Shown in pieces: positions 11,811 through 62,692 of a DNA stretch of 64,000 nucleotides. Location of the stretch: NCBI RefSeq assembly GCF_030730865.1, contig NZ_JAVALZ010000006.1, positions 1 to 64,000 on the forward strand. The letters are read 5' to 3'. This DNA is from Uliginosibacterium sp. 31-16. Its GTDB lineage: Bacteria > Pseudomonadota > Gammaproteobacteria > Burkholderiales > Rhodocyclaceae. Position numbers and translations under genes: made by a program. Under the pieces are notes generated by a model. The model did not search any database, had not been told where the DNA came from, and worked only from the letters and a program-made list of their open reading frames with translations. Each line of letters starts with the position of its first letter. The stretch's first letter is position 1.

Positions 11811-11932
11811 GGCCGAAGAGCCGCATCTGCAAAGACTTTGCGGCACACCGGCCTCGAACACCGCAGCGGACAAGCCTCTTCAGCACGCCTGCTCGAAAAG
11901 CCCCGCTGGATGAGGCTCTTCAGGCATGCCGG
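11811..11932. repeat. Dispersed intergenic inverted repeat, copy 1
   Basis: Lies between the convergent cyclase and histidine kinase genes. It holds two half-units, each with the GCCTCTTCAG/GGCTCTTCAGGCATGCC arm and an opposing GAAGAGCC/GAAAAGCC arm. Same family as the other copies listed below. Confidence 0.7.
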
Positions 11933-11969
11933 CGAGAGCTGGCACTCACGACCTTCCAGCCTCCAGAAC

Positions 11970-13715
11970 TCAGCCCTGCACCACAAGCGATTTTTTCGGC
12001 CTCAAGCCGAAGCTGACCGCTCCCGCCTGATTCTCGTCCAGCGTCAGCCGGTAGCCCGCCGATTCGGCCAGTCGATTGGCCTGGTAGAGGCCAATGCCGA
12101 GTCCGGAATCCGAGGCCAGCGGTTGCACGAATAGCTTGGCGGCACGATCTTCTTCAATGGGGTCGCCATTGTTCGTGATGCTCAGGCTGCAGCCGTCCGG
12201 GTCGGCCTCAAGGCGCACCCGGATGGCACTGGCCTGATGGTCCAGTGCATTGCGCAGCAGGTTGTCGGCCACACAATCAAACAGTGCCGCCGGCACCATC
12301 GTCGCGCCCACCTCTCCATCCTGTTCATAACGGATGCGCGCGTCCGGGTGGCGCGCCTGCAGCGCCGCCCACCATAGCCGAAGGGCTTGCGGGCGCAAAT
12401 CATCGGGGCGCGGCTGGCGGATGTTTTGCATGGCCTCGCTCAGGCGCTGCCGGATCGCCGGCAGTTGCTCGCCGAGCAGGCGCTGCACCGCCACCGGATC
12501 GCGTCCGCCATCGCTGAGCACCGCGTGGCACAGCATGTCCAGTGACTGCAGCAGGTTCTTGATCTCGTGCGTAGTCCGCGCGCCGGTCTCATGCACAGCA
12601 CGCAGGAAAGACAGCGCCTGCAGGCGCCGGGCCTGCTGCTTCGCGGCGTGGAATTCGGCCAGAACGCGCAGCATCAGATCAAACTGCCAGGCCGCCGTGG
12701 GCGTCAAGGCCACACTCGTGAAAACATCCACCTGCAACGCACCATGCTCCAGGCGGGCGCGATAACCCGTGCTGCGCCCCAGCCACTGCGCGCGTATCTC
12801 GCCGTTGCCCTCTTCCGCACACACCTGCCAGCTCAAACCCCGCACCCCGCGCCAAGCCGCCAGACGCGTCAGCGCCGTCGCCACAAACCTCTCCGGCGAC
12901 TCCTCACGCACGGCCAGATCCGCCACCTCGCGCATCCACAGCTCAAACGCCTGTCCGCCCCCCAGCAGACGGCGCGACACCTCCAGCCCCAGCCCGGCAA
13001 ACCCCTGCCGCGGCCCCCACGCCAGCCCAAGCGACAACAGGGTCAGAGCCATCGTCCCCAGCGCCTGCAGCAGGGCGCTCAGGTAATCGCTGCCGGCCAC
13101 GAACATGAACGCCAGAGAGCCAAGCAACACGCCCATTACCACCAGCACCAGCACCACGGCGCCGACCACGTCGACCTCGGCCGTTTCCTCGCTGGATGAG
13201 CCTTGCGATGGCGAGCGCTCGGCCCCGAGCAGCGCGATCAGCCCGCACGCCGGCAGCGCAAACCAGGCGGCGAAGCGGGTCAGGGCCAGTGGCACGGCAG
13301 CCACTCCCAGCAGCATCTGCGGCAGCACCAGACCGATCAAGTCCACCACCACGCAAATCAGCGCCAGCCAGTAGCCCAGCCGGCTGCGCAGACTGACGTG
13401 GTGAAACACCTTGCCGCCGAAAATGCCGATCAGCACCAGCCCCCACAGCACCAGCAGCCCCCAGGACAGGAAAACGCCCAAAGCCCCCAGCGCCAGAACC
13501 AGCACCAGCGTGCCGCCACGGGAAACCTCGCGTTCGCCGCTGACCAATGGCTGCCACAGCAGCACCACACCGAAATGCCCGAGCAGCAGCGCCTTGCCAG
13601 CGAGACTCAGTGGCCCCTGCAGCAACGCCGCATGCAGCAACAGCAGGAGCAAGGTCAGCAGAGCCGGATGGGCCAAGCCCCGCCAGCGTCCGGTCAGCCT
13701 AGAAAAAGCAAACAT
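11970..13715 (-). CDS. Orphan membrane histidine kinase
   Basis: Sensor kinase with a large membrane domain. From the ATG at 13715 (581 residues) the first half holds about nine hydrophobic helices. A roughly 150-residue cytosolic linker follows. The kinase core has the H-box HETGARTTHEIKNLLQSL (phospho-His in THEIKN), the N-box DNLLRNALDH, and an abbreviated ATP lid ending SGLGIGLYQANRLAE. The THEIKN form and long helical N-terminus recall PrsK-type kinases. No response regulator is adjacent, so the partner is unknown. A GTG at 13775 would add 20 residues ahead of the first helix. Convergent with the cyclase gene. Confidence 0.8.
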   Translation of the reverse strand: MFAFSRLTGRWRGLAHPALLTLLLLLLHAALLQGPLSLAGKALLLGHFGVVLLWQPLVSGEREVSRGGTLVLVLALGALGVFLSWGLLVLWGLVLIGIFGGKVFHHVSLRSRLGYWLALICVVVDLIGLVLPQMLLGVAAVPLALTRFAAWFALPACGLIALLGAERSPSQGSSSEETAEVDVVGAVVLVLVVMGVLLGSLAFMFVAGSDYLSALLQALGTMALTLLSLGLAWGPRQGFAGLGLEVSRRLLGGGQAFELWMREVADLAVREESPERFVATALTRLAAWRGVRGLSWQVCAEEGNGEIRAQWLGRSTGYRARLEHGALQVDVFTSVALTPTAAWQFDLMLRVLAEFHAAKQQARRLQALSFLRAVHETGARTTHEIKNLLQSLDMLCHAVLSDGGRDPVAVQRLLGEQLPAIRQRLSEAMQNIRQPRPDDLRPQALRLWWAALQARHPDARIRYEQDGEVGATMVPAALFDCVADNLLRNALDHQASAIRVRLEADPDGCSLSITNNGDPIEEDRAAKLFVQPLASDSGLGIGLYQANRLAESAGYRLTLDENQAGAVSFGLRPKKSLVVQG

Positions 13716-13910
13716 GCGCGAAGACTCATGGTTGAACCGCAAGATGGGGAAGCGCAAACGTGCGACTTTCGTCACGGTGCGTTGAAAATCTGACAGATCC
13801 GCTCGAAAAACAGGGCTTTACTTCAGGAAACAGGCCGAAAACCCAACATTTCCCGCAGGCATCATTATTGCTCAAGGCGTGGCAAGAAACTCATCCCACC
13901 GGAGCCCCCC

Positions 13911-14585
13911 ATGAAACGTCCGACCCAGCACACTCTGAAGCGCCAGCAGTCCGGCTTCACCCTTGTAGAAATCGCCATTGTGCTGGTCATCATCGGCCTG
14001 CTGCTCGGTGGCGTGCTGAAGGGGCAGGAGTTGATCAACAGCGCCAAGGCCAAAGCGGTCGTCAACGACTTCCGTAATGTCTCGGTAATGATCAACGCCT
14101 ACCAAGATCGCTTCCGGGCGCTTCCGGGTGATGACTCAAAAGCCGACAAAAACTTTACTGGTGGCGCGCTCGCCAGCACTACTCCTTCCTTACTGGGCAA
14201 TGGCTCAATCGATGGAAAATGGGACTCAACAACAAAAACGGATGAAACCTACTTGGCATGGCAGCACTTACGCTTGGCCAACCTTGCCAATGGCTCCACG
14301 ACAGTCGGTGCCACTGACTTCCAGCAAAAAAATGCTGATGGCGGAGTCATCGGCTTTCAGTCGGGAAAACCAACAGGCGTTGATGCAACAGACAAAATTT
14401 CAGGTCGACTCTTCGTCTGCCAGAGCCAAGTATCCGGAAGGATCGCGCAACAGGTAGATTCAACGATGGACAATGATCGTGATATTGCCGCCGGCTCTGT
14501 GTTCGTGCTGCTGAACGACCAATCCAAGATGGCCGCGGCGCCACTTGATGACGCGACGTTTTACATCGTCTGCGCTGGCTTCTGA
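13911..14585 (+). CDS. Free-standing type IV prepilin-like protein
   Basis: The 224-residue protein has a 15-residue basic leader ending in Gly, then FTLVEIAIVLVIIGLLLGG, a canonical prepilin peptidase and N-methylation site. The long mature domain has a Cys pair near the C-terminus (FVCQS and YIVCAG), like the disulphide-bounded D-region of pilins. It has its own terminator and is separated from the pilus operon by the kinase. It could be the major pilin that the operon lacks, or a minor pseudopilin. Its length is above the 140-180 residues usual for a major pilin. Confidence 0.75.
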   Translation: MKRPTQHTLKRQQSGFTLVEIAIVLVIIGLLLGGVLKGQELINSAKAKAVVNDFRNVSVMINAYQDRFRALPGDDSKADKNFTGGALASTTPSLLGNGSIDGKWDSTTKTDETYLAWQHLRLANLANGSTTVGATDFQQKNADGGVIGFQSGKPTGVDATDKISGRLFVCQSQVSGRIAQQVDSTMDNDRDIAAGSVFVLLNDQSKMAAAPLDDATFYIVCAGF

Positions 14586-14590
14586 GTTGC

Positions 14591-14630
14591 CGGCATGCCC
14601 GAAGAGCCCCGCCCCGCGCGGGGCTTTTTC
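14591..14630 (+). terminator. Rho-independent terminator built on a repeat arm
   Basis: The stem AGCCCCGC (14605-14612) pairs with GCGGGGCT (14618-14625) around a 5-nt loop and is followed by a T-tract. The sequence just before it, GGCATGCCCGAAGAGCCCCGC from 14592, matches the left arm of the dispersed repeat family, so the terminator seems to have grown out of a repeat copy. Confidence 0.85.
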
Positions 14631-14845: not shown

Positions 14846-14968
14846 ACACAAAACGGGCGGCTCAATAAACACACTTCAAAAAACGTGACGGCGCCTCGCA
14901 GAGCCGCGCGCAGCGGACCTCTTGCACATGCTATCCCGGAGGCCCTTGCACCGCCTGTTTGTTCCGAC

Positions 14969-15011
14969 AGGCATGCCGAAGAAGGCCACCAGAAGCGGCT
15001 CTTCAAGCACC
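14969..15011. repeat. Dispersed intergenic inverted repeat, copy 2
   Basis: AGGCATGCCGAAGAAGGCC on the left and GCGGCTCTTCAAGC on the right form the hairpin arms. Located 3' of the antiporter gene. Confidence 0.65.
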
Positions 15012-15040
15012 CCGAATTCACCTGCGACTTGCGCAGAGCT

Positions 15041-17074: not shown

Positions 17075-17102
17075 CGCCCATCAGTTTAACCGCAGCCTGC
17101 CC

Positions 17103-19862: not shown

Positions 19863-20608
19863 GCCTGCGCCGCTTCAAGTTGGTCCGCACTGCACGCGCC
19901 GGACTCCGGCCCTAGCCGGAACAGCCTCTGCGCGTAGGGTTTGTTGCTCCGCTGGCAGCCTCGGTTCAAGTCCTGAACCATGTCCCTGTGGCCGCCCATA
20001 CCCTCTCCGGGGAAGGCGGCCAAGCTGACTCCAGTCGGCTGCCACGCATGGCGTACGCCTGCAATCACCCGCAGGGCGTCCTTCGACAAGCGCGGGCAGG
20101 CCACCTCGATGCACGGCTTTCAAGCCGGACTATTTCGAGGTGTGCGAGGTCCAAACAAATCGGCCTGAATCAATAATCAAAGCCGGAAAACATAGCAAGG
20201 GGAGCCTGCGGCAGGACGACTCAAAAGCACTCCATCTGCCTCTACCTCCTCAAGACCCGCTTCGCGCCTGCTTCTCCAGACAGGATATCTGCACAAGCGC
20301 GCCCCGCCTGCCTCTCTGACATGCCTCCCCTGAAAGCCTTGCGCAGCGCAGCATAGCAAGCACCCTCAAAAGCATTTCGCACCGCATCAAGCAGCCCGCC
20401 CATCCGGACAGCTAACCGGATACAAACCCTTGTGGATAATGGTTACAAGCGGACATAATCGCGATTGATGCAGCGCAACATTTCTTGCTTGACAGGCGCA
20501 AAATCCTTCTTATAATTCGCATTGTGCGGCGCAGCAATGATTGATCAGGCAGCACATGCAGCACCTTGTGTAGCCGCGTTATCCCTAGACCAATATCAGG
20601 AGTCAGAC
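19863..20608. other. 746-bp intergenic region
   Basis: No supported gene. The first 250 bp are GC-rich with several small palindromes, including GGTTCAAGTCCTGAACC at 19964-19980 and a degenerate REP-like core near 20081. Two copies of a loose CATAGCAAG...CTCAAAAGCA pattern start near 20193 and 20353. The last 120 bp hold the phasin promoter. It occupies the place where lptB would be expected. Confidence 0.5.
20489..20516 (+). promoter_or_regulatory. Near-consensus sigma-70 promoter of the phasin gene
   Basis: TTGACA at 20489-20494 and TATAAT at 20511-20516 are both perfect consensus hexamers, separated by 16 bp. This is the strongest promoter visible in the window and fits an abundant granule protein. 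The leader to the start codon is about 85 nt. Confidence 0.85.
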
Positions 20609-24433: not shown

Positions 24434-25453
24434 ATGCCCCCATCAATCATGCGCAAACCTGAGCTGGTCTGCCCTGCCGGCAGCCTTCCGGCGCTCAAGA
24501 TGGCCGTCGACAATGGCGCCGACACCGTCTATCTGGGCCTCAAGGATGCCACCAACGCCCGCAATTTTGCCGGCCTGAATTTCGATCAGAACTCCGCCAG
24601 TGAGGGAATTCGCTACGCCCAGAGCCGTGGCCGCCAGGTGCTGATGGCCATCAACACCTACGCCCAGGCCGGCGAAGAGAAGCGCTGGCATCAGGCGGTG
24701 GATATGGCCGCCGGGCTGGGCGTAGATGCGGTCATCATGGCTGACCCCGGCCTGCTGGATTACGCCAGCAAAACCCACCCGCAACTGCGTCGCCATCTGT
24801 CCGTGCAGGGCTCGGCCACCAATTACGAAGCCATCAACCTGTATCGCGATCTGTTCGGGATTTCGCGTGCAGTGCTGCCGCGGGTGCTGACCTTGTCGCA
24901 GGTCGAGCATGTGATCGCTCATACCGATGTGGAGATCGAGGTCTTCGGCTTCGGCAGCCTCTGCGTGATGGTGGAGGGCCGCTGCCTGCTCTCCAGCTAC
25001 GCCACAGGCGAGTCGCCTAACACCGCTGGCGTGTGCTCGCCGGCCAAAGCCGTGCGCTGGGTGGAAACACCCCAAGGCACCGAAGCGCGCCTGTCCGGCA
25101 TCCTTATCGACCAGTACGGCCAGGACGAACCTGCGGGCTATCCGACCCTGTGCAAGGGACGTTTCGAGGTCAATGACGAAACCTACTACGCGCTGGAAGA
25201 GCCCACCAGCCTGAACGTGCTGGCCGCGCTGCCGGAACTGCTGCGCATTGGCGTAGCGGCGATCAAGGTGGAAGGCCGTCAGCGCAGCCCGGCCTATGTT
25301 GCCGAAGTCACCCGCACCTTGCGGGCGGCCATCGATGCCGCCCATGTCGATCCGGCCCGCTTCGCGCCCAAACCCGCCTGGGACGCCGCACTGGGCAAGG
25401 TTTCCGAAGGTCAGCACGTAACGTTGGGCGCCTATCTCCGGCCGTGGAAATAG
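24434..25453 (+). CDS. ubiU: Ubiquinone biosynthesis protein UbiU (U32 family)
   Basis: With UbiV forms a [4Fe-4S] hydroxylase that makes ubiquinone without oxygen, using prephenate as the hydroxyl donor in E. coli. The 339 residues begin KPELVCPAGSLPALKMAVDNGADTVYLG, the U32 signature. The cluster-binding Cys set is visible as GSLCVMVEGRC, GVCSP and LCKGR. I chose ATG 24434, which has GGAG 9 bp upstream; ATG 24449 is also possible. Followed by ubiV and ubiT, the conserved trio. This implies growth at low or no oxygen with ubiquinone-dependent respiration, for example on nitrate. Confidence 0.92.
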   Translation: MPPSIMRKPELVCPAGSLPALKMAVDNGADTVYLGLKDATNARNFAGLNFDQNSASEGIRYAQSRGRQVLMAINTYAQAGEEKRWHQAVDMAAGLGVDAVIMADPGLLDYASKTHPQLRRHLSVQGSATNYEAINLYRDLFGISRAVLPRVLTLSQVEHVIAHTDVEIEVFGFGSLCVMVEGRCLLSSYATGESPNTAGVCSPAKAVRWVETPQGTEARLSGILIDQYGQDEPAGYPTLCKGRFEVNDETYYALEEPTSLNVLAALPELLRIGVAAIKVEGRQRSPAYVAEVTRTLRAAIDAAHVDPARFAPKPAWDAALGKVSEGQHVTLGAYLRPWK

Positions 25454-25582
25454 CATGCCCGCTCAGCCGCATGCAGCGGACGTTTCCGGGCGACTACCCC
25501 GAAGACGTCCGTGCGACAAGCCTCTGCGGCACGGCTATCTGAAGAAGCCCGCAGCAAGCGGCTCTACAGACAGCTTGTTGCA
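25453..25582. repeat. Dispersed intergenic inverted repeat, copy 3
   Basis: Lies between ubiU and ubiV. It contains GACAAGCCTCTGCGGCA, CTGAAGAAGCCCGC and AAGCGGCTCTACAG in the family order. A preceding half has GCATGCCCG...CCGGGCG. It starts within a few bases of the ubiU stop. Confidence 0.7.
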
Positions 25583-28622: not shown

Positions 28623-30265
28623 CTGCCCTGCAACACCGCCGAGATGTGATCAACGACGGGAATCCAGTCATTCGGAGAAGGCTGTCTGAAAAGACGGGCC
28701 GTCGGATACCACGGACAATCATCGCGCCCAATCATCCAGCGCCAATCAGCCGCAAAAGGAAGCATGATCCAGACAGGTTTTCCCAATGCTCCCGCCAGAT
28801 GAGCCACTGATGTATCAATGGAAACAATAACGTCCATGCAGGAAACCAGTGCGGCGGTATCCGCAAAATCATCCAACTCTTTGTCATACAAAAAAAGATT
28901 TGAAAATCGACCTAACACGGTTCTGTCACCATCACCGACCCCCTTTTGAATGCAGAAATAGTCGTTGCCTTCATGGATCAGCTTCTCCAGCATTGATATC
29001 GGGAGATTTTTGTTCCCTTTTGTGGTGGTTGCCCAGATCAGTCCGATACGCCGCCGCCCAACAGCCGGGATCAAGTTTTGCCATTTCTCCAATATCTCGT
29101 GGGGAGCAGAAAGATATGCAGAGCCATCCGGAATCTGGTCAACCCTTGTCCTCAGCAGTCGCGGCAAACTCAGGAGCGGACAGTGCAGATCAAATTCCGG
29201 CAGTTCCGCACCTTTCGCCACGATCTGACTCACGCCCTCAAGTGAGGAAAGCAGCTTCACTAAAGAACCCTGGACTTCAAGCACAACCCTTGCACCAAGA
29301 TCGGCCACCAGTCTGGCGTAACGGCAAAATTGCAAGGTGTCGCCAAAGCCTTGTTCGGCATGCAGCAGGATAGTCCGACCATCCAGGGACTCGCCCTGCC
29401 ACTGCGGCTGTTTGAAATCCCTTATCCAGTTCTTTCGCTGTTCCTTCCAGCGCCATTCGTACTTCTCCCAGCCCGTCTCGTATTCGCCGATCTTCAAACG
29501 ACACAAGGCTTCGTTCCAATGCGCATCCGCGTAGCCGGGAGAAAGTTTCTGCGCTTGCAGGTAGTGTTCCAAGGCCAGCGGAATCAGGCCTTTTTCTTCC
29601 AGCACAACACCTCGGTTGACCAACGCAGGAACATGATCCGGCTCGACCTCCAGAATGCGATCATAGATCTTCAACGCATCGTCGAGTTGCCCGAGCTTTT
29701 CCAGAGCACTGGCTTTGTTCACCTGTGCGTCGACGTGCCCTGGTTCAATAGCCAGCACTCGATCAAAGTAAGTTATAGCCTCCGCGTATTTTTCCGCCTT
29801 CCACAGTATCGACCCGCAATTGTTGAGCGCATCAGCATACATAGGCTGGAATTGAAGAACCCTCAGAAAACTCTCAAATGCATCCTGAGTTCGCCCCATG
29901 TCACGCAGAAGATTGCCCCGGTTGAAATGCGCCTCGACTACATCTGGCGCGATCGCGATTGCACGGTCATAAGTTTCCAGCGCCTCTTCATGTCGCCCAA
30001 GGCGCCGCAATGCAAGCCCCAGGTTGACATGCGCCGCAGCAAATCCGGGGTTCAGGGTTAGCGCCTGGCCTATCCACCGGACAGCCGACTCATCATCACC
30101 TGCATCACTGCACAGCAGCCCCAGCAGATGCAAAGCATCAACCTGACGCGGGTCTATCTGCAGAACGGCCTGATAGAGTTGCCTGGCTTCCACGTAACGC
30201 CCTGTCTGATGCGAGGCAAAGGCTTTCGATAGCAGCCCAAAAACCACAGGCGATTGTGTATTCAT
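28619..30265 (-). CDS. TPR-glycosyltransferase, paralogue A
   Basis: A soluble protein with about seven TPR units (residues 5-270) and a C-terminal GT-B-type domain (about 285-545). The latter is of the heptosyltransferase/O-GlcNAc-transferase-like kind found with bacterial protein glycosylation. Signatures are LLHAEQGFGDTLQFCRYA and SIDTSVAHLAGALGKPVWIMLPF..DWRW. I start at ATG 30265, which aligns with the paralogue; an upstream GTG would add five residues. The substrate is unknown. The first 132 codons are nearly identical in DNA to those of the next gene, while the rest has diverged. Confidence 0.8.
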   Translation of the reverse strand: MNTQSPVVFGLLSKAFASHQTGRYVEARQLYQAVLQIDPRQVDALHLLGLLCSDAGDDESAVRWIGQALTLNPGFAAAHVNLGLALRRLGRHEEALETYDRAIAIAPDVVEAHFNRGNLLRDMGRTQDAFESFLRVLQFQPMYADALNNCGSILWKAEKYAEAITYFDRVLAIEPGHVDAQVNKASALEKLGQLDDALKIYDRILEVEPDHVPALVNRGVVLEEKGLIPLALEHYLQAQKLSPGYADAHWNEALCRLKIGEYETGWEKYEWRWKEQRKNWIRDFKQPQWQGESLDGRTILLHAEQGFGDTLQFCRYARLVADLGARVVLEVQGSLVKLLSSLEGVSQIVAKGAELPEFDLHCPLLSLPRLLRTRVDQIPDGSAYLSAPHEILEKWQNLIPAVGRRRIGLIWATTTKGNKNLPISMLEKLIHEGNDYFCIQKGVGDGDRTVLGRFSNLFLYDKELDDFADTAALVSCMDVIVSIDTSVAHLAGALGKPVWIMLPFAADWRWMIGRDDCPWYPTARLFRQPSPNDWIPVVDHISAVLQGR

Positions 30266-30401: not shown

Positions 30402-32075
30402 TCAATGAATATCCAAACCCTTTATCGCCTCAGCCAACCCCTTAAGTACGGGTGACCAATCACCTGAATCGGTCTGTCTCAACAGCCTGGCCGTCGGATA
30501 CCAAGGGCTGTCATCCCGTTGTTGCAACCAGCGCCATTCCGCGGGGTAGGGCAACATGACAATGACTGGCTTGGCCATGGATCCAGCCAGATGTGCTACG
30601 CCCGTATCAATGGATACGACAACATCCATCAGCGAAACCAGAGCGGCAGTATCACCAAAATCCTGCAGCATCCCTTCAAAAGAAAAAACATTCGGATAGT
30701 CGTCCATCCGTAATTTATCTTCTTCACTCACCTCTTTCTGCAATACACAGATCGCGACTTTCTCCCCGAGCGTAGACACCAAGCGTTCCAAGGCGACTCG
30801 GCGCTTTGCGTTATTCCGTGTAACCGTATCCCAAACAATACCGATACGCCCGCCTCGATCGGGAACACCATACTGATCCAAGATCCCCCGCCACTTTGAA
30901 ACAGCAGCCTCCGCAGGAAATACATAAGGTGTTCTGGATGGAATGGTATCAAGTGTCGTTTGCAGTACCCTGGGGAGGCTCATGAGCGGGCAATGCACAT
31001 CAAACTCGGGCAAGTCATCTCCTCTGGCAACAATATGACTCACACCTTCAAGAGCACCCAGCAGACTCACAAGAGATGGCTGAACCTCCAGAATTACTTT
31101 TGCTCCCAAACCGGCGACTAAACTCGCGTAGCGACAAAACTGCAAGGTATCGCCAAACCCTTGCTCTGCGTGCAGCAGAATTGTTCGTTCGTTCAGCGAT
31201 TCGCCTTGCCATTGCGGTGATTGAAAATTCCTTGTCCAAGCATTTTGCGTCCCTTTCCATCGCCATTCATATTTCTTCCAGCCAATTTCGTATTCTCCGA
31301 TTTTCAGGCGACACAAGGCTTCATTCCAGTGCGCGTCAGGAATATCAGGAGCAAATTTTTGTGCCAGCAGATAATCGCCCAAGGCTTCCGAATTCAACCC
31401 TTTGTCCTCAAAAATGCTGCCTCGATTGACTCGCGCAACAATATGTTCGGGCTGCATTTCAAGCACGCAATCGTAAATGGGCAGCGCTTCGGCAGTTTTG
31501 CCAAGTTTTTCAAGTGAACTGGCTTTGTTGACCAGTGCATCAACATGTCTTGCGTCAGCAACAAGCGCCCGATCAAAGTAATCAATCGACTCCTCGTAAC
31601 GCTCTGCCTTCCACAGTATCGACCCGCAATTATTGAGCGCATCAGCATGCTCTGGCTGATATTGCACAACGCGCAGGAAACTCTCAAATGCATCCTGGGT
31701 TCGCCCCATGTCACGCAGAAGATTGCCCCGGTTGAAATGCGCTTCGACTACATCTGGCGCGATCGCGATTGCACGGTCATAAGTTTCCAGCGCCTCTTCA
31801 TGTCGCCCAAGGCGCCGCAATGCAAGCCCCAGGTTGACATGCGCCGCAGCAAATCCGGGGTTCAGGGTTAGCGCCTGGCCTATCCACCGGACAGCCGACT
31901 CATCATCACCTGCATCACTGCACAGCAGCCCCAGCAGATGCAAAGCATCAACCTGACGCGGGTCTATCTGCAGAACGGCCTGATAGAGTTGCCTGGCTTC
32001 CACGTAACGCCCTGCCTGATGCGAGGCAAAGGCTTTCGATAGCAGCCCAAAAACCACAGGCGATTGCGGATTCAT
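30402..32075 (-). CDS. TPR-glycosyltransferase, paralogue B
   Basis: The 557-residue paralogue has the same plan: TPR units to about residue 270 and a GT-B-type C-terminal domain with LLHAEQGFGDTLQFCRYA and SIDTGVAHLAGSMAKPVIVMLPYPAEWRW. The start at 32075 is an ATG without a clear ribosome binding site. It is separated from paralogue A by 136 bp and transcribed ahead of it. The C-terminal domains have diverged enough to suggest different acceptor or donor use. The neighbours give no flagellin or pilin target directly, but this genome has pilins a few kilobases away. Confidence 0.8.
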   Translation of the reverse strand: MNPQSPVVFGLLSKAFASHQAGRYVEARQLYQAVLQIDPRQVDALHLLGLLCSDAGDDESAVRWIGQALTLNPGFAAAHVNLGLALRRLGRHEEALETYDRAIAIAPDVVEAHFNRGNLLRDMGRTQDAFESFLRVVQYQPEHADALNNCGSILWKAERYEESIDYFDRALVADARHVDALVNKASSLEKLGKTAEALPIYDCVLEMQPEHIVARVNRGSIFEDKGLNSEALGDYLLAQKFAPDIPDAHWNEALCRLKIGEYEIGWKKYEWRWKGTQNAWTRNFQSPQWQGESLNERTILLHAEQGFGDTLQFCRYASLVAGLGAKVILEVQPSLVSLLGALEGVSHIVARGDDLPEFDVHCPLMSLPRVLQTTLDTIPSRTPYVFPAEAAVSKWRGILDQYGVPDRGGRIGIVWDTVTRNNAKRRVALERLVSTLGEKVAICVLQKEVSEEDKLRMDDYPNVFSFEGMLQDFGDTAALVSLMDVVVSIDTGVAHLAGSMAKPVIVMLPYPAEWRWLQQRDDSPWYPTARLLRQTDSGDWSPVLKGLAEAIKGLDIH

Positions 32076-34561: not shown

Positions 34562-34870
34562 TTTGCAACTCCTCGTAGCGGGTGATGTTCCGGACCGGCG
34601 TGATTGCCTGTCCGACACCTGCAGATTACGTATCGAAGCTGACCGAAACCTGAGGGGAAGCTGACAGCCACCTGACGCTAGCCACGTGCGTTCGAGGGAG
34701 CTGAAGCCCGGCGCCTGACAAGAGTCTTCAGCATCGGAGCGCCAAGACCCGCGCCAGTCAAGCCTTTATGGCATGCCTATCTGCAGGAGTACGCCGCAAG
34801 CGGCTTTCCGGGCATCCTGAAAAAGCAATAGCGCAGGCGGAAACGCCCGCTCGACACGGGCGCCGCGTTC
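34562..34870. other. 309-bp region between relA and the small exported protein gene
   Basis: Holds a copy of the dispersed repeat near the relA 3' end and, on the other side, the promoter region of the small gene. No open frame has gene-like features. Confidence 0.5.
34758..34820. repeat. Dispersed intergenic inverted repeat, copy 4
   Basis: AAGCCTTTATGGCATGCCT and GCAAGCGGCTTTCCGGGCAT carry the two arms. Lies 3' of relA. Confidence 0.6.
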
Positions 34871-38529: not shown

Positions 38530-38830
38530 GGGCTTAGGGATCGCTCCGGAGAGCCGCTTCTGTCAAGGCTCTCCGGCTTGACTGCTTGAAGACCCTCACT
38601 GGACAAGCCTCTGCGGCATACCTGCCTGAAGAGTTCCGCCAGAAGCGGCTCTCCGGGCCAACAGGAAAACACACCTCACACATGGCCGCCAGATGAATCC
38701 GGCCCGGCCAAAACCCCGTACCGGCGCCCGCTCACGGAAACTTTAGCCCGCACGCAAACCTCAGAACGCGGAACTCCGCCACCGGCGGCTGTAGAATCGC
38801 ACCCTGATCTTCACTCGCGGTTCCTTCCAC
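38530..38830. other. 301-bp intergenic region
   Basis: The first 135 bp are a double copy of the dispersed repeat (next entry). The rest is GC-rich with no gene and no clear promoter box before the acyltransferase gene. Confidence 0.5.
38546..38665. repeat. Dispersed intergenic inverted repeat, copy 5 (double unit)
   Basis: The first unit is a perfect 10-bp hairpin, CCGGAGAGCC (38546-38555) with GGCTCTCCGG (38567-38576), 17 bp after the stop of the upstream gene. The second unit has AAGCCTCTGCGGCATACC, TGAAGAG and AAGCGGCTCTCCGGG. Confidence 0.8.
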
Positions 38831-39709: not shown

Positions 39710-39719
39710 AGCGGGATCA

Positions 39720-39833
39720 CTGAAGAGCCTCTTCCGGCAAGCTTCTGCAGGCAGGCTTGTTGCAAAACAGCGCCCAGCGCGGAGTTCCCGAATGCCTGCT
39801 GAAGAGCAGCACGACATGCGGCTCTGCGGGCGG
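39720..39833. repeat. Dispersed intergenic inverted repeat, copy 6 (double unit)
   Basis: Sits between the convergent acyltransferase and moaE genes. It shows GAAGAGCCTCTTCCGGC, TGCAGGCAGGC, AATGCCTGCTGAAGAGC and ATGCGGCTCTGCGGGC. Confidence 0.75.
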
Positions 39834-44766: not shown

Positions 44767-44777
44767 CCCCCCCCCCC
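44767..44777. repeat. Homopolymer of 11 C
   Basis: A run of eleven C directly after the stop of the four-PAS cyclase gene. It lies outside the coding frame, so length change would not alter the protein. Confidence 0.8.
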
Positions 44778-44786
44778 GCAAGCCGC

Positions 44787-44885
44787 ATCGGACAACACTC
44801 TTCAGCACCATGGCCTGAAGACCCTTACCCAAAGCCATTCTGCAGCACGACCACCCGCCAAGGCCCGTCAGACGCGGCTTGGCGA
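44787..44885. repeat. Dispersed intergenic inverted repeat, copy 7 (degenerate)
   Basis: GCATCGGACAACACTCTTCAG, TGGCCTGAAGACCC and ACGCGGCTTGGCGAG follow the family order with several substitutions. Confidence 0.55.
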
Positions 44886-45057
44886 GCCCCATCCCGTGCC
44901 ATGGTGGCCCGATACATGACGTTCTGCCAGCGACGGAAGGCGGCCTGCCCTAAGGACCATCGCAAGTTTCAGGCAAATCCGTCGTAGAGTCTGGTGACGC
45001 ACGGGTTGAGAGGTGCCTGCATGCCCGCCGGCCACCCGCCCAGTACCCTCCGGAACC

Positions 45058-48000: not shown

Positions 48001-48354
48001 CGCGTGCGTGCGCTAGGCGTCAGCTTGGCGCTGGACGACTTCGGCACCGGCTATTCCTGCTTGGCCTACCTCAAGCGTCTGCCCATCGAACGCCTGAAGA
48101 TCGACCGCTCCTTCATCAAGGATCTGCCCGGCGATGCAGAAGACTCCGCCATCGCCTCGGCCACCCTGTCGATGGCGCGCGATCTGGGCATGCTGGTCGT
48201 CGCCGAAGGCGTGGAGAACGCAGCCCAGCGCGATTACCTGATCAATCGCCGCTGCCGCTCGATCCAGGGCTACTTCGTGTGCAAGCCCCAGACCGCGGAG
48301 GCGCTGACTACGTGGCTGCGGGAGCGGATGACAGCACCGACAACAGGTGCCTGA
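45058..48354 (+). CDS. MASE1-CHASE-GGDEF-EAL c-di-GMP protein
   Basis: A 1098-residue membrane protein from ATG 45058; a GTG at 45013 would add 15 residues. The MASE1 domain (about 10-210, eight or so helices) is followed by a CHASE periplasmic sensor (about 215-470), a further helix near 495-515, a short coiled segment and a PAS-like region. GGDEF (about 680-835) has the intact GGDEF motif and RADD inhibition site. The EAL domain (about 850-1090) has CEALVRW, ITESALL and DDFGTGYS with the metal-binding acids. Both activities could be active. The stop codon lies inside the first arm of a repeat copy. Confidence 0.92.
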   Translation: MPADLRETLRLNILLAVAYIASGWLALLVALPPGYVSPLYPPAGIALAAVLIYGWRMSAGLYAGAFLVQVLAHVHTSLPIDLPILALSSIGPLLQALAGAWLMRQMKIWPGGLDSARSVVLFVGMTAPAGCLISASLAMPTLFSIGTSDWSVAFQNWSAWWAGDTLGVLLFTPISLALIGLPEQEWRGRRRSVALPLLICAQVLAGALMFVRQREESRITDEFQRNAEHLANTLSSRLAAQTDMLMAVERFASVDPEFSREDWRRITTRWLDRYPGTQNLTWNPLVRHAERARFEARLRAEGWPDFRIMDRDAAGKTRIAADAPDYLPITYVEPMSSNLRALGLNPGSYEILAAAINLTRETGRAAATEAVRLVQAPDSPHSVVVYQAVFERENDPASPLRGIVSMALQLENIVHFAREQLQSDGIDLCMADRSNPPERQRLYGPAGCSSPVWLDHHRFLIRQMNYADRQWQILLRAGDHYSARSRSWASGATLGTALCFSGMLSAFLLMMTGRTRRIEEQVAQRTAELASATAQLRDQKASLAHAQRIARMGSWEISSGASNLHCSEEFRRLLDLPAAGRILLGDVLARLSPEDRPRLDEAIKEASRAPENIALDCSTRSDDENLQVLHFQIESEWMMGRLLRLHGTVQNVTATRQAEAHIQYLARFDSLTGLPNRSYWQELARSALSSARRHHDQAAVLFLDLDHFKTINDSLGHPVGDQLLTAVAARLKHSLRADDILARQGGDEFVVLLPRLSSFEEVSSVASKLVKSLTEPLQLQEHELTVSVSIGIAHFPSDGDDIDTLLKHADVAMYSAKQAGRNNFQFFVPEMNQRAMQRLEMENALRRAIDRGELILHYQPQLNLESGLIEGCEALVRWQHPERGMIPPIQFIPLAEESGLILALGDWVMREACLQQARWAAEGIPLMMAINISALQFQQADFVQKVARIIEESGADPRAIELEITESALLASTEELIDQLERVRALGVSLALDDFGTGYSCLAYLKRLPIERLKIDRSFIKDLPGDAEDSAIASATLSMARDLGMLVVAEGVENAAQRDYLINRRCRSIQGYFVCKPQTAEALTTWLRERMTAPTTGA

Positions 48355-48475
48355 AGAGCCGCATCTGTAAAGGCTTTTCAGGCACGCCATCCGCACCCCC
48401 AATACTGACGCGCCTTTTCGCCACCCCATCCCGCTCAGGTCCGCGGGAAGAGGCTCTCCGGGCATGCCCACTCAG
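48347..48475. repeat. Dispersed intergenic inverted repeat, copy 8, overlapping a stop codon
   Basis: GTGCCTGAAGAGCC (48347-48360) pairs with GGCTTTTCAGGCAC (48372-48385), a 14-bp hairpin with one G-T pair. The TGA stop of the upstream gene is inside the left arm. A second half-unit ends in GAGGCTCTCCGGGCATGCCC at about 48450-48470. Confidence 0.8.
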
Positions 48476-52583: not shown

Positions 52584-52934
52584 ATGAATCCGGACTTTCA
52601 CGCAACTGCCCTCATGATCAACAGCGACGGCATGGGCCACGGCGACGAGACCCTGCGCCAGCGCCTGCTCGTCAATTACCTGAGGACTCTGGTCGAGCTG
52701 GAAACGCCTCCGCAAGCCATCCTGCTCTACGCGGCAGGCGTCAAGATGGTCATCAACACATCGCCATGCCGGGCCGAGATCACCCGTCTGCGCGAAGCCG
52801 GCACCCGGGTCATCGCCTGCCGTACCTGTCTGGATCATTACGGCCTGATGGAGCACGTGCCGGAAGCCGAGATCGGCAACATGCTGATGATCGTCGAAGC
52901 GCAAGGCGCCGCGGCGAAAGTGATCACCCTGTAG
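52584..52934 (+). CDS. YedF/DsrE-like protein without a TusA domain
   Basis: A 116-residue single-domain protein from ATG 52584 (GGGAGA upstream). It has MINSDGMGHGDETL at the start and IACRTCLDHYGLMEHV near 85, a pattern seen in the C-terminal domain of YedF selenium-metabolism proteins. In YedF proper a TusA-like sulphur carrier domain precedes this; it is absent here. The conserved Cys pair in CRTC and the earlier Cys of SPCR could carry sulphur or selenium. Its exact role is unknown. Confidence 0.65.
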   Translation: MNPDFHATALMINSDGMGHGDETLRQRLLVNYLRTLVELETPPQAILLYAAGVKMVINTSPCRAEITRLREAGTRVIACRTCLDHYGLMEHVPEAEIGNMLMIVEAQGAAAKVITL

Positions 52935-52958
52935 CCCCGCACACGGCGGCCTTCTGCA

Positions 52959-53010
52959 GCATGCCTGCCGGAAGAAGCCCGCCCTGTGCGGCTCTGCAGG
53001 CAGAGCATGC
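52959..53010. repeat. Dispersed intergenic inverted repeat, copy 9
   Basis: A clear hairpin with GCATGCCTGCCGGAAGAAGC on the left (52959 on) and GCGGCTCTGCAGGCAGAGC on the right (52988 on), separated by a few bases. It is 25 bp after the YedF-like stop. Confidence 0.8.
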
Positions 53011-54870: not shown

Positions 54871-54890
54871 GCGTCACCGGCAGCTACGGC

Positions 54891-54915
54891 AAGGCCCCGC
54901 AAGGGGCCTTTTTGT
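54891..54915 (+). terminator. Rho-independent terminator of the NTF2-like gene
   Basis: The same 20-bp AAGGCCCC-GCAA-GGGGCCTT hairpin as at 54260, at 54891-54910, followed by TTTTG. Confidence 0.9.
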
Positions 54916-54917
54916 TG

Positions 54918-55003
54918 CATGCCCGGAGAGGCGCACCGGGCGGGCCTGCCCACGGCTCCGTGCTGCAGAACAAGGCGGGATGCGGCTCTTCAGGCATCAC
55001 GCC
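54918..55003. repeat. Dispersed intergenic inverted repeat, copy 10
   Basis: GCATGCCCGGAGAGGCGC, GTGCTGCAGAACAAGGC and GATGCGGCTCTTCAGGCAT show the family pattern. Lies between two converging genes. Confidence 0.7.
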
Positions 55004-56554: not shown

Positions 56555-56680
56555 GCCTGCCCGAAGAGCCTCTTCCCGCTTGGATCTTCAGACATGACAC
56601 CCGGACAAGCAGACGGGGAGAGAATCTTCAGCATACCTGCCGGAAGATGTCCGTCCGGTGCGGCTAACCAGGCGCACCGG
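56555..56680. repeat. Dispersed intergenic inverted repeat, copy 11 (double unit)
   Basis: CCTGCCCGAAGAGCCTCTTCC, TTGGATCTTCAGACATG, then GGACAAGCAG...AATCTTCAGCATACCTGCCGGAAGATGTCCG and GGTGCGGCTAACCAGGC. Starts five bases after the radical SAM gene stop. Confidence 0.75.
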
Positions 56681-58269: not shown

Positions 58270-58271
58270 GA

Positions 58272-60103: not shown

Positions 60104-60730
60104 ATGAAAATCGCCATCATCGGAACGGGCAACATGGGCGCAGGCTTGGCCTCGGCACTGGCTACAGCAGGACACGAAATCAGCGTCGGGGCGCGTGATC
60201 TGACCAAAGCCGCCGCATTGGCAGAGAAGATCGGTCACGGCGCAGTGGGTGGCGGGATTACCGCCGTAGCCCAGCTTGCTGACGTGGTGATTCTGGCGCT
60301 GCCGTTTGGCGCCGCAGCCGAGGCCATCAAGCTGGCCGGAGACCTCGCCGGCAAGCTGCTGATCGATATCTCCAACCCGATCAGCGCGGACTACAAGGAA
60401 CTCACCATCGGTCACACCACTTCGGCCGCCGAAGAAATCCAGAAGCTCGCCCCGCAGGCCCGCGTGGTGAAAGCCTTCAACACGATCTTTGCGCAATTGC
60501 TGGCGCCCGAATCCCGCACCGGCAAAACCCTGCAAGTGTTCGTGGCGGGCGATGACGCTACCGCCAAGGCCACCGTATCCGGGCTGGCGCAGTCCATCGG
60601 CTTCGAGGCCGTGGAAGCCGGCCCGCTTTCCAATAGCCGTTTCATCGAGCCTATCGGCGAGATGAACATTCATTTCGGCTACTTCCTTGGCAAGGGCCCG
60701 AGCGTCGCGCCGGCCTGGGTTCAGATTTAA
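60104..60730 (+). CDS. NADP/F420-reductase-like oxidoreductase, paralogue 2
   Basis: The 208-residue protein starts KIAIIGTGNMGAGLASALATAGHEI, with KLLIDISNPISADYKELTIGH and ARVVKAFNTIFAQLL. It is clearly homologous to the 58272-58904 protein, with the same SAAEEI and FVA.DDATAK segments. An AAGGAG site precedes the ATG. It is the first gene of a plus-strand run with an exported hydrolase and a tautomerase. Confidence 0.85.
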   Translation: MKIAIIGTGNMGAGLASALATAGHEISVGARDLTKAAALAEKIGHGAVGGGITAVAQLADVVILALPFGAAAEAIKLAGDLAGKLLIDISNPISADYKELTIGHTTSAAEEIQKLAPQARVVKAFNTIFAQLLAPESRTGKTLQVFVAGDDATAKATVSGLAQSIGFEAVEAGPLSNSRFIEPIGEMNIHFGYFLGKGPSVAPAWVQI

Positions 60731-60792
60731 ACCGTTTGCCCTCACCAGGCGGCCTGCGTCAGCGGGCCGCTGGATTGCCTTCAAGGATCATC

Positions 60793-61791
60793 ATGGACTT
60801 CCGTATTCGCACAGTGCTGGGCGCACTCGCCCTGCTGGTCTGCTCCAGCCTTGCACTGGCCGCTCCGGCCATCGAAGTGCTGGGCCGCGACTTCAGCTTT
60901 CCCAACAAGCTGGAGGGCCTTCCTGCAAAGCTCTCTGACTTCAAGGGCCTGCAGATCAACAGTTTCACCACCAGTGATGACGTGCAGCTCAGCTACTGGG
61001 AGGCGGGTTCCGGCAAGCCGCTGGTGTTCATCCCGGGCTGGTCGGCCAACGGCGCCGAGTACATCAATGTGATGTACCTGCTCAGCAAGAATTACCACGT
61101 TTATGTGCTGGACCCGCGCAATCAGGGCCTGTCGCAACGCGTCGATTACGGCACGCGCATCGCACGCTTTTCGGTGGACCTCAAAGAGTTCTCGGCGCAC
61201 CTTGGCCTAAAGTCGGCCGATTACATCGGCTGGTCAATGGGGGCCTCCGTGCTGTGGGGCTACATCGACCTCTTCGGTACGCAAGGCATGCGTAAGGCTG
61301 TCTTCGTGGATGAGCCGGTGTCGATCTATTCGCACGCGGACTGGTCGGAGCAGGAGCGTCTGGAGGCCGGCGGCATGACTTCCTCAGTCGAGCGCATGGT
61401 CGCCAGTTTCACGGCCGGCGCGCCGACCAACCAGCTCGTGGTCGACATGAAGGTCATCGAGCGTGCGATGGCCACAGATTCGCCCTATTACGTGAACTCG
61501 CAAGCCTTCGCCAACGCGTTCATCAAGACCGACCCTGCCTTTACCGCCAAGGTGCTGTTCGATCACGCGACCAATGACTGGCGCGACGTGATCCGCCACA
61601 AGATCACAGTTCCCACTGCGATCTTCTCGGGTGAATACAGCCACAACCTGCCCAGTCAGCGCTGGATGGCCTCGGTGATTCCGAATGCCCGGCTCTATGC
61701 CTATACCGAGGCTGAGCAGGGCGACCACTTCCTCATGTTCAAGAACCCGCACAAATTCACCCTGGATCTGCGCGATTTTCTCGAACACTGA
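60793..61791 (+). CDS. Exported alpha/beta hydrolase
   Basis: From ATG 60793, with AAGGA 6 bp upstream, it has 332 residues. The signal peptide MDFRIRTVLGALALLVCSSLALAA precedes APAIEVLG. The alpha/beta hydrolase core has the oxyanion motif FIPGWSANG near 97, the nucleophile elbow GWSMGAS near 150 and a late His in GDHFLMF. The substrate is unknown. Export to the periplasm sets it apart from the cytosolic fusion hydrolase at 57100-58269. Confidence 0.82.
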   Translation: MDFRIRTVLGALALLVCSSLALAAPAIEVLGRDFSFPNKLEGLPAKLSDFKGLQINSFTTSDDVQLSYWEAGSGKPLVFIPGWSANGAEYINVMYLLSKNYHVYVLDPRNQGLSQRVDYGTRIARFSVDLKEFSAHLGLKSADYIGWSMGASVLWGYIDLFGTQGMRKAVFVDEPVSIYSHADWSEQERLEAGGMTSSVERMVASFTAGAPTNQLVVDMKVIERAMATDSPYYVNSQAFANAFIKTDPAFTAKVLFDHATNDWRDVIRHKITVPTAIFSGEYSHNLPSQRWMASVIPNARLYAYTEAEQGDHFLMFKNPHKFTLDLRDFLEH

Positions 61792-61862
61792 GTTCGCGCC
61801 GGCCTCGGCCGGCTAACTTCCCCAACCCCAACCTCAATCTCATTTCATTCAAGGAGAAACCC

Positions 61863-62045
61863 ATGCCCGTCGTACGCGTCAGCTGGTTCGAAGGTAAAGA
61901 CACCCCCACCAAACAGGCTGTAGCCGCTGAAATCACCGAAAGCATCGTGCGCAATACCGGCACCGATGCAAAGTACATCTACGTCATCTTCGAAGACGTG
62001 AAACCCTCTGACTGGGCCGGTGAAGGCAAGCTTTTCGGCGGCTGA
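61863..62045 (+). CDS. 4-oxalocrotonate tautomerase family protein
   Basis: A 60-residue protein, the normal 4-OT size. Pro after the initiator Met is the catalytic base (MPVVRVSWFEGK). A strong AAGGAG binding site is 5 bp upstream. It is 71 bp after the exported hydrolase and may share a transcript. The substrate is unknown. Confidence 0.85.
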   Translation: MPVVRVSWFEGKDTPTKQAVAAEITESIVRNTGTDAKYIYVIFEDVKPSDWAGEGKLFGG

Positions 62046-62084
62046 GTCCTTGGTCCCTGGCGGTGCGCCTGCCAGCGCGCCGCC

Positions 62085-62495
62085 TTACTCTGCCGTCGAA
62101 GACACACATCTCAGCAAGCGCTGACAATTCACAGCGGCTGGCTGGAACACGGCCAGTAACGCATCCATCAGCTGTTCAGCCCGCGTCGTGTTGTCGGCCG
62201 AGTAGTTGCACACATACACATCCAGCGTGACGACGCCGAATTCCGGCCAGGTGTGCAGAGCGACGTGCGATTCGGCGAGCAGCAGGGTGCCGGTGACTCC
62301 GCCGGCCTGTTCTCCCGCATCCGGAAAACGGTGAAAGGCTTCGCCGACAACGGTAAGTCCGGCAGCCAGCACCGCTTCGCGCGCCAGCAGGGCAAGTGCC
62401 GGAGCATCGCTGAGCAAGGCCGGCGCACAGGCGCAAGCCTGCAGGTCGGCAACCAGATGCAGGCCTTGCATGGCGGCGGGAACGGATGGATTCAT
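62085..62495 (-). CDS. speD: S-adenosylmethionine decarboxylase proenzyme
   Basis: Makes decarboxylated AdoMet for spermidine synthesis. The 136-residue SpeH-type proenzyme has LLAESHVALHTWPE; self-cleavage between Glu75 and Ser76 creates the pyruvoyl group. Downstream VCNYSADNT carries the Cys general acid. No speE is adjacent. The tautomerase gene converges on it. Confidence 0.92.
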   Translation of the reverse strand: MNPSVPAAMQGLHLVADLQACACAPALLSDAPALALLAREAVLAAGLTVVGEAFHRFPDAGEQAGGVTGTLLLAESHVALHTWPEFGVVTLDVYVCNYSADNTTRAEQLMDALLAVFQPAAVNCQRLLRCVSSTAE

Positions 62496-62589
62496 CAGGG
62501 GTCCTGAGGCGTTCAGTCAAAACGGCAGGCGAATGGTGACATGAATCCGGCGGGAATGCGGCTGTACTGCCGGGCGGCGGAAGAGGCGC

Positions 62590-62692
62590 TTGCAGCCTTG
62601 ATCTGCAGGCAGGCATGCTGGCAAGACCCGACAGGCATGGTTCTCCAGCACATCCGCCTGAAGAAGACCGCCGGATGCGGCTCTTCGAGCCC
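62590..62692. repeat. Dispersed intergenic inverted repeat, copy 12 (double unit)
   Basis: GCAGGCAGGCATGCTGG, GACAGGCATGGTTCTCCAGC, CCGCCTGAAGAAGACCGCC and GGATGCGGCTCTTCGAGC. Lies between the GltD-like gene terminator and the speD start. Confidence 0.75.

What the first reader, a model, noticed from the sequence alone, without database searches (positions are those of the whole stretch)
11811..62692. Dispersed family of intergenic inverted repeats, at least 13 loci in 51 kb
Intergenic sites at 11811, 14591, 14969, 25453, 34758, 38546, 39720, 44787, 48347, 52959, 54918, 56555 and 62590 share one unit. The left arm is about GGCATGCCTGAAGAGCCGC and the right arm about GCGGCTCTTCAGGCATGCC, separated by a few bases, and units are often doubled into 100-130 bp. 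Every site lies 3' of at least one gene and none lies between divergently transcribed genes (checked at 17.0, 24.3, 37.1, 42.3, 52.5, 55.3 and 60.0 kb). This placement is known for REP/BIME elements. I do not recognise the unit as a named family.
Basis: partly seen in the sequence, partly recalled or inferred. Interest (0 to 1): 0.7.

Follow-up and report, generated by a model that had tools for sequence, protein, structure and literature searches.

The report
Phased arrays of 40-bp protein-site-like units
Several hundred short DNA arrays, each usually two or three 40-base units in exact register, sit mostly just after genes in this bacterium; they look like landing sites for an unknown DNA-reading protein rather than mobile hairpin repeats.

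Summary
In detail: 12 of the 13 listed sites are full elements and four more lie in the window. The REP/BIME reading is only partly supported. In 1.264 Mb (32%) of the genome I elements against 3 with the reversed matrix, about 750 genome-wide by extrapolation. 225 of 242 hold two (83 bp) or three (123 bp) 40-bp units; 161 of 168 non-zero end-to-end centre distances are exactly 40 or 80. Elements share about 49% identity, with no close dispersed pair in 864 kb. No base-pair covariation was found at any register. Instead two adjacent bases 4-5 bp from each unit centre are tightly coupled: six dinucleotides fill 722 of 780 variable halves (422 if independent), and 155 of 162 in four other genera. 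Some elements lie inside conserved protein domains without an insertion, so they arose there by substitution. Elements favour convergent gaps and are rare in divergent ones. Against this reading, both RAYT-like genes have an element on their 3' side. Best explanation: cis arrays read as duplex DNA by an unidentified protein, perhaps organising the chromosome. The DNA-level reading is well supported; the function is inferred.

The parts
2505..2587.
   Evidence: score 46.8; variable dinucleotides TT/CC
8265..8387 (.).
   Evidence: score 61.9
11807..11929 (.). 3-unit element between convergent genes
   Evidence: score 81.2; sequence; gene calls
14592..14610 (+). isolated outer half-site joined to an ordinary hairpin/T-run terminator; not a full element
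14890..15012 (.). 3-unit element between convergent genes
   Evidence: score 71.2; gene calls
20243..20365 (.).
   Evidence: score 60.7; gene calls
25453..25575 (.). 3-unit element starting at the stop codon of the upstream gene
   Evidence: score 81.4; gene calls
34695..34817 (.). 3-unit element downstream of a RelA/SpoT-family gene
   Evidence: score 59.9; family
   Evidence: score 32.8
38540..38662 (.). 3-unit element, highest score in the window
   Evidence: score 90.9
39714..39796 (.). 2-unit element; a third unit seems to follow after a 1-bp deletion (to about 39837, read by eye)
   Evidence: score 48.3; sequence; offsets of 79
44769..44891 (.). 3-unit element starting 4 bp after the stop codon of a GGDEF gene
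   Evidence: score 54.5
48345..48467 (.). 3-unit element overlapping the stop codon of a GGDEF/EAL gene
   Evidence: score 70.8
52923..53005 (.). 2-unit element between tandem genes
   Evidence: score 56.3
54917..54999 (.). 2-unit element directly after an ordinary-looking terminator
   Evidence: score 60.1; sequence
56555..56677 (.). 3-unit element downstream of a radical SAM gene
   Evidence: score 75.8
62572..62694 (.). 3-unit element
   Evidence: score 81.7

Best explanation
The elements are cis-acting DNA arrays recognised as double-stranded DNA by an unidentified sequence-specific protein. Each 40-bp unit is a pseudo-dyad: A-n-A at -11/-9 and T-n-T at +9/+11 (a 20-bp rhythm along the array), usually a GC dinucleotide 4-5 bp from the centre on one half, and a variable two-base word on the other. 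Two or three units at exactly 40 bp form a working array. Arrays arise and persist at individual loci by substitution and selection rather than by transposition. Shown here: register, coupling, lack of pairing covariation, in-place origin for elements in coding sequence, placement. Inferred: the protein, cooperative binding, in-place origin of the intergenic majority, and the role, most likely a chromosome-structuring or insulating site at the ends of transcription units about every 6 kb.
For: Exact register: all 9 long matches were 107 bp although 97-127 was allowed; of 168 non-zero centre distances 161 are 40 or 80, 5 are 39 or 79, 2 are other values, none 41 or 81. At about 50% identity between elements, neutral decay should have left many indels (inference). 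Coupling of adjacent bases near 1 bit at +-4/5 against 0-0.11 in the flanks; pairs 8 or more apart average 0.003, the largest (0.20) being between the two words of the middle unit. The additive matrix contains no pair term, yet the rule holds in 400 kb used neither for the matrix nor for the rule (186/208, permuted mean 108.8), in in-gene elements (106/110, partly overlapping the defining set) and in four other genera (155/162, permuted 104). No Watson-Crick covariation; RNAalifold predicts 0 pairs on 38 elements; folding energies of 40 three-unit elements match draws from the matrix (-53.0 vs -52.2), of 40 two-unit elements are slightly lower (-36.4 vs -32.7, sd 7.5). In-place origin: EarP, CobD/CbiB and Polysacc_synt domains run through elements without insertion, and the orthologues compared, of EarP and CobD, have no element there. 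Placement: elements in 42 of 59 convergent and 71 of 225 tandem gaps of 80 bp or more; 9 elements in divergent gaps, 93 of that size. Spacing more even than a slot-based null, CV 0.68 vs 0.90, P 0.003, after leaving out two deserts over 20 kb.
Against: No binding protein was identified. With the deserts kept in, the spacing CV does not differ from the null (0.92 vs 0.92); only the lack of close neighbours (P 0.003) and, weakly, the shortage of long intervals (P 0.04) do. Isolated half-sites outside elements are only slightly in excess (150 vs 115 in the reversed control above score 12, 16 vs 2 at 17 or more, 410 inside elements), so stepwise assembly leaves few visible intermediates, awkward for in-place evolution. 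Both RAYT-like genes have an element on their 3' side, while only 69 of 387 genes in 540 kb do. None of four positions that could be compared with the nearest congeners (two gaps in G005; earP and cobD in G002 and G005) is shared, so single sites turn over. Five congeners show no elements in samples of 40-72 kb, so the function cannot be universal. Placement bias is weaker in relatives (of 53: 25 tandem, 11 convergent, 5 divergent, 12 coding or edge). Variation among elements slightly exceeds independent draws.
Confidence: 0.5

Rival explanations
1. REP/BIME-type mobile palindromes spread by a RAYT, later diverged.
For: 3' placement, high copy number, palindromic look, patchy distribution; two PF01797 genes in this genome, both with a three-unit element on their 3' side (L030 1061-1183, score 54.8; L031 1016-1138, score 71.0). 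This was checked last and raised my odds from 0.08 to 0.1.
Against: Only one side of each RAYT-like gene carries an element in the 3.3 kb held. No GTAG/CGTC tag; no compensatory changes; best dispersed pair only 73% identical among 7537 pairs, in 22% of the genome; no insertion at the earP and cobD elements; G026 has elements and no PF01797 match; all five congeners without clear elements carry PF01797 genes.
Confidence: 0.1
2. DNA-uptake watermark (DUS/USS-like): sites accumulate because DNA carrying them is preferentially taken up and recombined.
For: Consensus differs between lineages, foreign-like genes and an acquired-looking region lack elements, the two in-gene elements compared lie in locally more divergent stretches, close neighbours are rare. 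Similar traits are reported for Neisseria DUS (PMC2397512, abstract and passages).
Against: A single DUS suffices for transformation according to that paper, whereas here single half-sites outside elements are only slightly in excess and two or three units in exact register are the rule; competence was not examined.
Confidence: 0.15
3. Preferred topoisomerase or gyrase sites that relieve supercoils at transcript ends.
For: Length of 123 bp, 20-bp rhythm, strong preference for convergent gaps; the BIME/gyrase precedent is recalled, not searched.
Against: Gyrase is conserved (recalled) while the consensus changes between genera and several congeners show no elements; the ribosomal-protein/rpoBC cluster, expected to be highly transcribed, is a desert.
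Confidence: 0.1
4. RNA-level 3' elements (terminators or mRNA stabilisers) acting as hairpins in either strand.
For: Median 14 bp after the stop codon; elements fold somewhat better than shuffles (mean z -1.6 and -2.3); canonical terminators somewhat rarer where an element is present (13/42 vs 9/17 convergent, 9/71 vs 29/154 tandem).
Against: No pairing covariation, pairs avoided at some central positions (z -8.5 at +-5), no T-run in the consensus, an ordinary-looking terminator directly beside an element (54879-54917), elements in mid-gene.
Confidence: 0.1

Closest known systems
REP/BIME elements with RAYT transposases (PMC2817692, PMC3733652; passages read)
   Same: Hundreds of copies, mostly 3' of genes, palindromic units combined in small arrays, some inside genes; RAYT-like genes present, with an element on the 3' side.
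   Different: REPs have hairpin stems with complementary alternative residues, a GTAG or CGTC tag and variable spacers; here the spacing is fixed, no covariation, no tag, no insertion at the coding copies that could be tested.
DNA uptake sequences (PMC2397512; abstract and passages read)
   Same: Dispersed, in permissive places of the core genome, absent from acquired genes, spacing not random; lineage dialects (title of PMC3630211 in the listing).
   Different: DUS are 10-12 bp and work singly; these are 83-123 bp arrays with a two-base word rule.
Beta-proteobacterial repeat element BRE (PMC3110155; one section and passages read)
   Same: Betaproteobacteria, about 90 bp, intergenic with some copies in genes, one copy reported in Azoarcus EbN1.
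   Different: BRE: at most 29 copies above 70% identity, tandem and variable in number; its sequence is not in the text, so the two could not be compared directly.
Dispersed chromosome-organising sites such as matS or KOPS (recalled, no call)
   Same: Genome-wide protein-read DNA motif with a bias in placement.
   Different: Those are single short motifs; no arrays of asymmetric dyads with coupled dinucleotides are known to me.

Membership tests
REP (GTAG/CGTC superfamilies) | GTAG or CGTC tag at one end of the unit | tested here: not met
   Of 320 ends at most 11 have GTAG at any one offset, 5 CTAC, 14 CGTC, 22 GACG
REP (GTAG/CGTC superfamilies) | Hairpin stem kept by complementary alternative residues | tested here: not met
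   No covariation on 228 units or 322 ends; 0 consensus pairs on 38 sequences
REP/RAYT | Associated RAYT transposase (PF01797) in genomes with elements | tested here: not met
   G026 (99% complete) has 0 matches at E 0.001 but 8 called elements; five congeners with PF01797 genes show no clear elements in samples. Other element-bearing genomes do have PF01797 genes
REP/RAYT | RAYT gene bordered by the repeat | tested here: inconclusive
   Both PF01797 genes of this genome have a three-unit element on their 3' side and none on the other side in the 3.3 kb held
BIME | Extragenic placement 3' of genes, avoidance of divergent gaps | tested here: met
   42/59 convergent and 71/225 tandem gaps of 80 bp or more contain elements; 9 elements in divergent gaps; but 22/163 inside strong genes
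MITE or other inserted element | Copies added by insertion | tested here: not met
   Shown for three in-gene copies by continuous Pfam domains, for two of them also by orthologues, none with more than 14 gap residues in the segment. Intergenic copies not tested
DNA uptake sequence | Short motif that suffices singly and occurs singly | tested here: not met
   Outer half-sites above score 12: 410 in elements, 150 outside, 115 in the reversed control (16 vs 2 at 17 or more)
DNA uptake sequence | Enriched in core, absent from recently acquired genes | tested here: inconclusive
   Low-codon-score genes 3% vs 16-28% with a 3' element, but the ribosomal cluster is also empty
DNA uptake sequence | Raises transformation efficiency | not testable with these tools
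   Needs an experiment
Intrinsic terminator | Stable hairpin followed by a T-run | tested here: not met
   No T-run in the consensus; no sign that structure is conserved
BRE of Bordetella and relatives | Sequence similarity to the ~90-bp BRE | not testable with these tools
   The text of section 14 gives no sequence; it points to a figure and additional files
Known RNA family | Match to an Rfam model at gathering score | tested here: not met
   0 matches in the window

The most novel reading that the evidence does not exclude
The variable two-base words form a code: several related proteins, or one protein with alternative reading modes, read GC, CC, TT, AG, AA or AC at each half, so that each array carries a locus-specific address used to pair or order chromosomal segments in this group of Rhodocyclales.
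Probability: 0.1. Interest if true: 0.95.

Novelty: categorically new. Interest (0 to 1): 0.78.

Why it matters
Dispersed palindromes behind bacterial genes are usually filed as mobile hairpins. Here the same appearance seems to hide something else: a genome-wide set of long arrays, in exact register, some of which demonstrably evolved in place, with a dinucleotide rule kept across genera while the rest of the sequence drifts. If a protein reads them, it would be a major and so far unnoticed organiser or watermark of these chromosomes, and the two-base rule gives a direct handle for testing how non-additive DNA recognition evolves. It also gives a general test (base-pair covariation against adjacent-base coupling, and gap-free copies inside genes) to separate protein-site arrays from REP-like repeats in other genomes.

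Tried and rejected
Hairpin/RNA reading: covariation at unit centres, junctions, whole-element and all column pairs, plus folding energies and RNAalifold; no support beyond the symmetry of the consensus. Polarity of three-unit elements against transcription: tandem counts 22/7 on + and 10/12 on - genes, suggestive at most; the likelihood of polarity lay within the range of symmetric null draws (one of ten exceeded it), so not claimed. RAYT bordered by the unit: both PF01797 genes have a three-unit element on their 3' side, none on the other side in the loci held; kept as evidence for the rival. Orthologous intergenic comparison: 76 syntenic pairs, 8 with an element here, 3 of them with a counterpart in an element-bearing relative (two in G005, one in G026), none shared; too few. 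A neighbour of one G005 element had only a 31%-identical match here, so that comparison failed. R1 across the class: 0 of 184 other genomes at 1e-4, with at most 19 candidates scored per genome. Exact-word patterns found almost nothing outside this genome, presumably because the consensus differs between lineages. Literature: eight searches ran; no description of such arrays was seen in their listings, and I read passages of four papers only.
Full report
OBSERVATION. The window belongs to a 3.90-Mb, 8-contig genome of a Rhodocyclales bacterium; the RelA/SpoT-family protein of the window is 72% and 65% identical to a Rhodocyclales MAG and an Uliginosibacterium MAG.

REGISTER. GAAGAGCCGC-N-GCGGCTCTTC with 77-107 free bases gave 9 elements, all exactly 107 bp. 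In the first 464 kb the distances from the motif to its complement (one mismatch allowed, within 200 bp) are 97 in 11 and 57 in 7 cases; seven other values, 17, 56 and 96 among them, occur once each. I trained an additive, ungapped matrix of 40-bp units with one to seven units allowed and applied it to 400 kb not used in training: 83 elements against 1 for the reversed matrix. On all 1.264 Mb, training parts included, it gives 242 elements (155 with three units, 70 with two, 14 with one, 2 with four, 1 with five) against 3 controls; scaled to 3.90 Mb this is about 750 (my extrapolation). End-anchored half models lie 0 bp apart in 90 cases; the 168 other pairs lie 40 (76) or 80 bp (85) apart, 39 in 2, 79 in 3, 2 and 102 once each, never 41 or 81. 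An ungapped model can miss elements broken by indels, but this end-anchored test would have shown them.

SEQUENCE LOGIC. The most conserved bases are A-n-A at -11/-9 and T-n-T at +9/+11 of each unit centre, so these marks alternate every 20 bp along the array, plus CTG/CAG outside them and GC at -5/-4 of the outer halves. Mean identity between elements is 0.52 (two units) and 0.49 (three units), near independent draws from the matrix (0.50, 0.48) but with a somewhat wider spread. Among 7537 pairs of equal unit number in 864 kb the best dispersed pair is 73% identical; the three pairs above that are local (0.74-0.83, within 1-2.6 kb).

NOT A HAIRPIN FAMILY. Watson-Crick pairing shows no clear excess over shuffles at unit centres, junctions or the whole element (largest z 2.1), and is avoided at +-4, 5 and 7 (z -4.6, -8.5, -4.8). 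A scan of all column pairs on 322 element ends finds no pairing diagonal; the one strong positive pair (z 7.4) is 3 bp apart, all others are 3.7 or less. RNAalifold on 38 elements predicts no pairs. Folding energies equal those of matrix draws for three-unit elements and are 3.7 kcal/mol lower, half a standard deviation, for two-unit elements (40 elements each).

THE TWO-BASE RULE. Adjacent positions 4 and 5 from the centre carry 0.8-1.0 bit of mutual information, against 0-0.11 in the flanks; pairs at least 8 bp apart average 0.003, the largest being 0.20 between the two words of a middle unit. Read towards the centre, the variable halves hold GC, CC, TT, AG, AA or AC in 722 of 780 cases, 422 if the two bases were independent; one-step intermediates between GG and AA on the other strand (AG 0, GA 4 of 320) are nearly absent. 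The rule was defined on 864 kb. In the 400 kb fetched later it holds in 186 of 208 (permuted mean 108.8, maximum 137); in elements inside strong genes in 106 of 110 (25 of 26 in the later 400 kb). In other genomes, where elements were found with retrained matrices, it holds in 83/88 (G034), 30/30 (G019), 20/20 (G031), 22/24 (G026) and 21/28 (G005); 6/8 in G038 is not significant. The additive matrix cannot produce this coupling. In middle units of three-unit elements exactly one GC half is commoner than chance (94 of 155, expected 71).

IN-PLACE ORIGIN. Of 163 elements scoring 30 or more in 864 kb, 22 lie wholly inside strong genes. I ran Pfam on ten such genes. In EarP, CobD/CbiB and Polysacc_synt the domain alignment runs through the element without room for an insertion (for example EarP residues 6-374 on profile 1-372). 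The other seven lie in linkers, tails, a start or regions without a domain and do not discriminate. Orthologues of EarP (27) and CobD (13) align through the segment, without gaps in 10 and 6 cases and otherwise with 1-14 gap residues; none scores as an element there (best within 3 bp -13.8), and the protein of this genome keeps family residues although the segment is more divergent (EarP 38% vs 75% elsewhere against G005; CobD 66% vs 84% against G002). Intergenic elements could not be tested this way.

PLACEMENT. With my own gene calls, of the 163 elements 73 are in tandem gaps, 45 in convergent, 9 in divergent and 36 in coding or at edges; 42 of 59 convergent and 71 of 225 tandem gaps of 80 bp or more hold one; there are 93 such divergent gaps. 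The median distance to the stop codon is 14 bp. In 540 contiguous kb (83 elements above 25) the two gaps over 20 kb are, by protein starts that I recognised by eye, mostly the ribosomal-protein/rpoBC/tuf cluster (43.8 kb) and a lower-GC polysaccharide-type region (21.7 kb). Leaving these two out, spacing averages 5.8 kb with CV 0.68 (null 0.90, P 0.003) and few pairs under 1.5 kb (7.5% vs 19%, P 0.001). With them in, CV is not unusual (0.92), but close pairs are still rare (7% vs 18%, P 0.003); in the window alone the CV is 0.54 vs 0.78, P 0.05. Genes with low codon scores rarely have a 3' element (3% vs 16-28%), which may be confounded by doubtful gene calls.

DISTRIBUTION. The exact 12-mer CTGAAGAGCCGC is nearly private to this genome (174 vs 0-5 in 40 relatives). 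A sequence-only covariance model of 38 elements has matches up to E 0.01 in 22 of 61 genomes including this one, with 11 or more in G005, G034, G026, G038, G031, G019 and G022 (both strands counted, at most 58 candidates scored per genome). Stretches around some of those hits gave elements with lineage-specific consensus (matrices trained on few sequences). A generic matrix trained without the target genome (own matrix included) still scores 18, 12, 8, 8 and 5 elements above 20 in G034, G005, G026, G019 and G031 against 0-2 for reversed or respaced controls; G038 and G002 have 3 each; samples of 40-72 kb from G001, G003, G004, G006 and G007 have none. The stretches were chosen by hits, so these are not density estimates. 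Among 184 other genomes drawn from the class none matches at 1e-4.

RAYT. PF01797 has no match in G026, which has elements, and is present in the five element-poor congeners. But both PF01797 genes of this genome have a three-unit element on their 3' side (scores 54.8 and 71.0), whereas 69 of 387 genes in the 540 kb do.

MECHANISM. Fixed register, non-additive local recognition and lack of pairing point to a protein reading duplex DNA, probably as two or three asymmetric dimers side by side (inference). Rarity in divergent gaps and in the ribosomal cluster, preference for convergent ends and the shortage of close neighbours fit a structural or insulating role; a DNA-uptake watermark is the most serious rival, since uptake sequences show several of the same traits (PMC2397512), but single half-sites are only slightly enriched. 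What is missing is the protein. The verdict 'categorically new' rests on the architecture and the two-base rule; the general kind 'dispersed protein-read motif' is known.

Noticed in passing
window 44767-44777: A run of 11 C just after the stop codon of a GGDEF gene, at the edge of an element; possible slippage site.
   Followed up: partly
L154 (G038:C93:1-18000): Eight single-unit copies resembling CCTGAAACCCTTGGTGGGAGCGGGTCTCAGG within 18 kb, by eye more alike than elements elsewhere; may be a recently amplified single-unit relative or a different REP-like family.
   Followed up: partly
L015 9146-9268 and 11774-11896: Two elements 2.6 kb apart, 74% identical, each with an ordinary-looking terminator hairpin and T-run in the left part (by eye).
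   Followed up: no
L013 18620 and 19576; L167 13007 and 13987: Pairs of elements about 1 kb apart with 80-83% identity, apparently local segment duplications.
   Followed up: no
L030 1061-1183 and L031 1016-1138: Both RAYT-like (PF01797) genes of the genome have a three-unit element on their 3' side.
   Followed up: partly
G000:C1:391560-435380: The ribosomal-protein/rpoBC/fusA/tuf cluster (recognised by eye) is the longest stretch without elements in the 540 kb examined.
   Followed up: partly
L014 16163-16245: A two-unit element lies mostly in the linker between the two Pfam domains of dprA, a gene of natural transformation.
   Followed up: no
window 29130-29429 and 30940-31239: Two 300-bp stretches 69% identical, apparently duplicated adjoining genes.
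   Followed up: no
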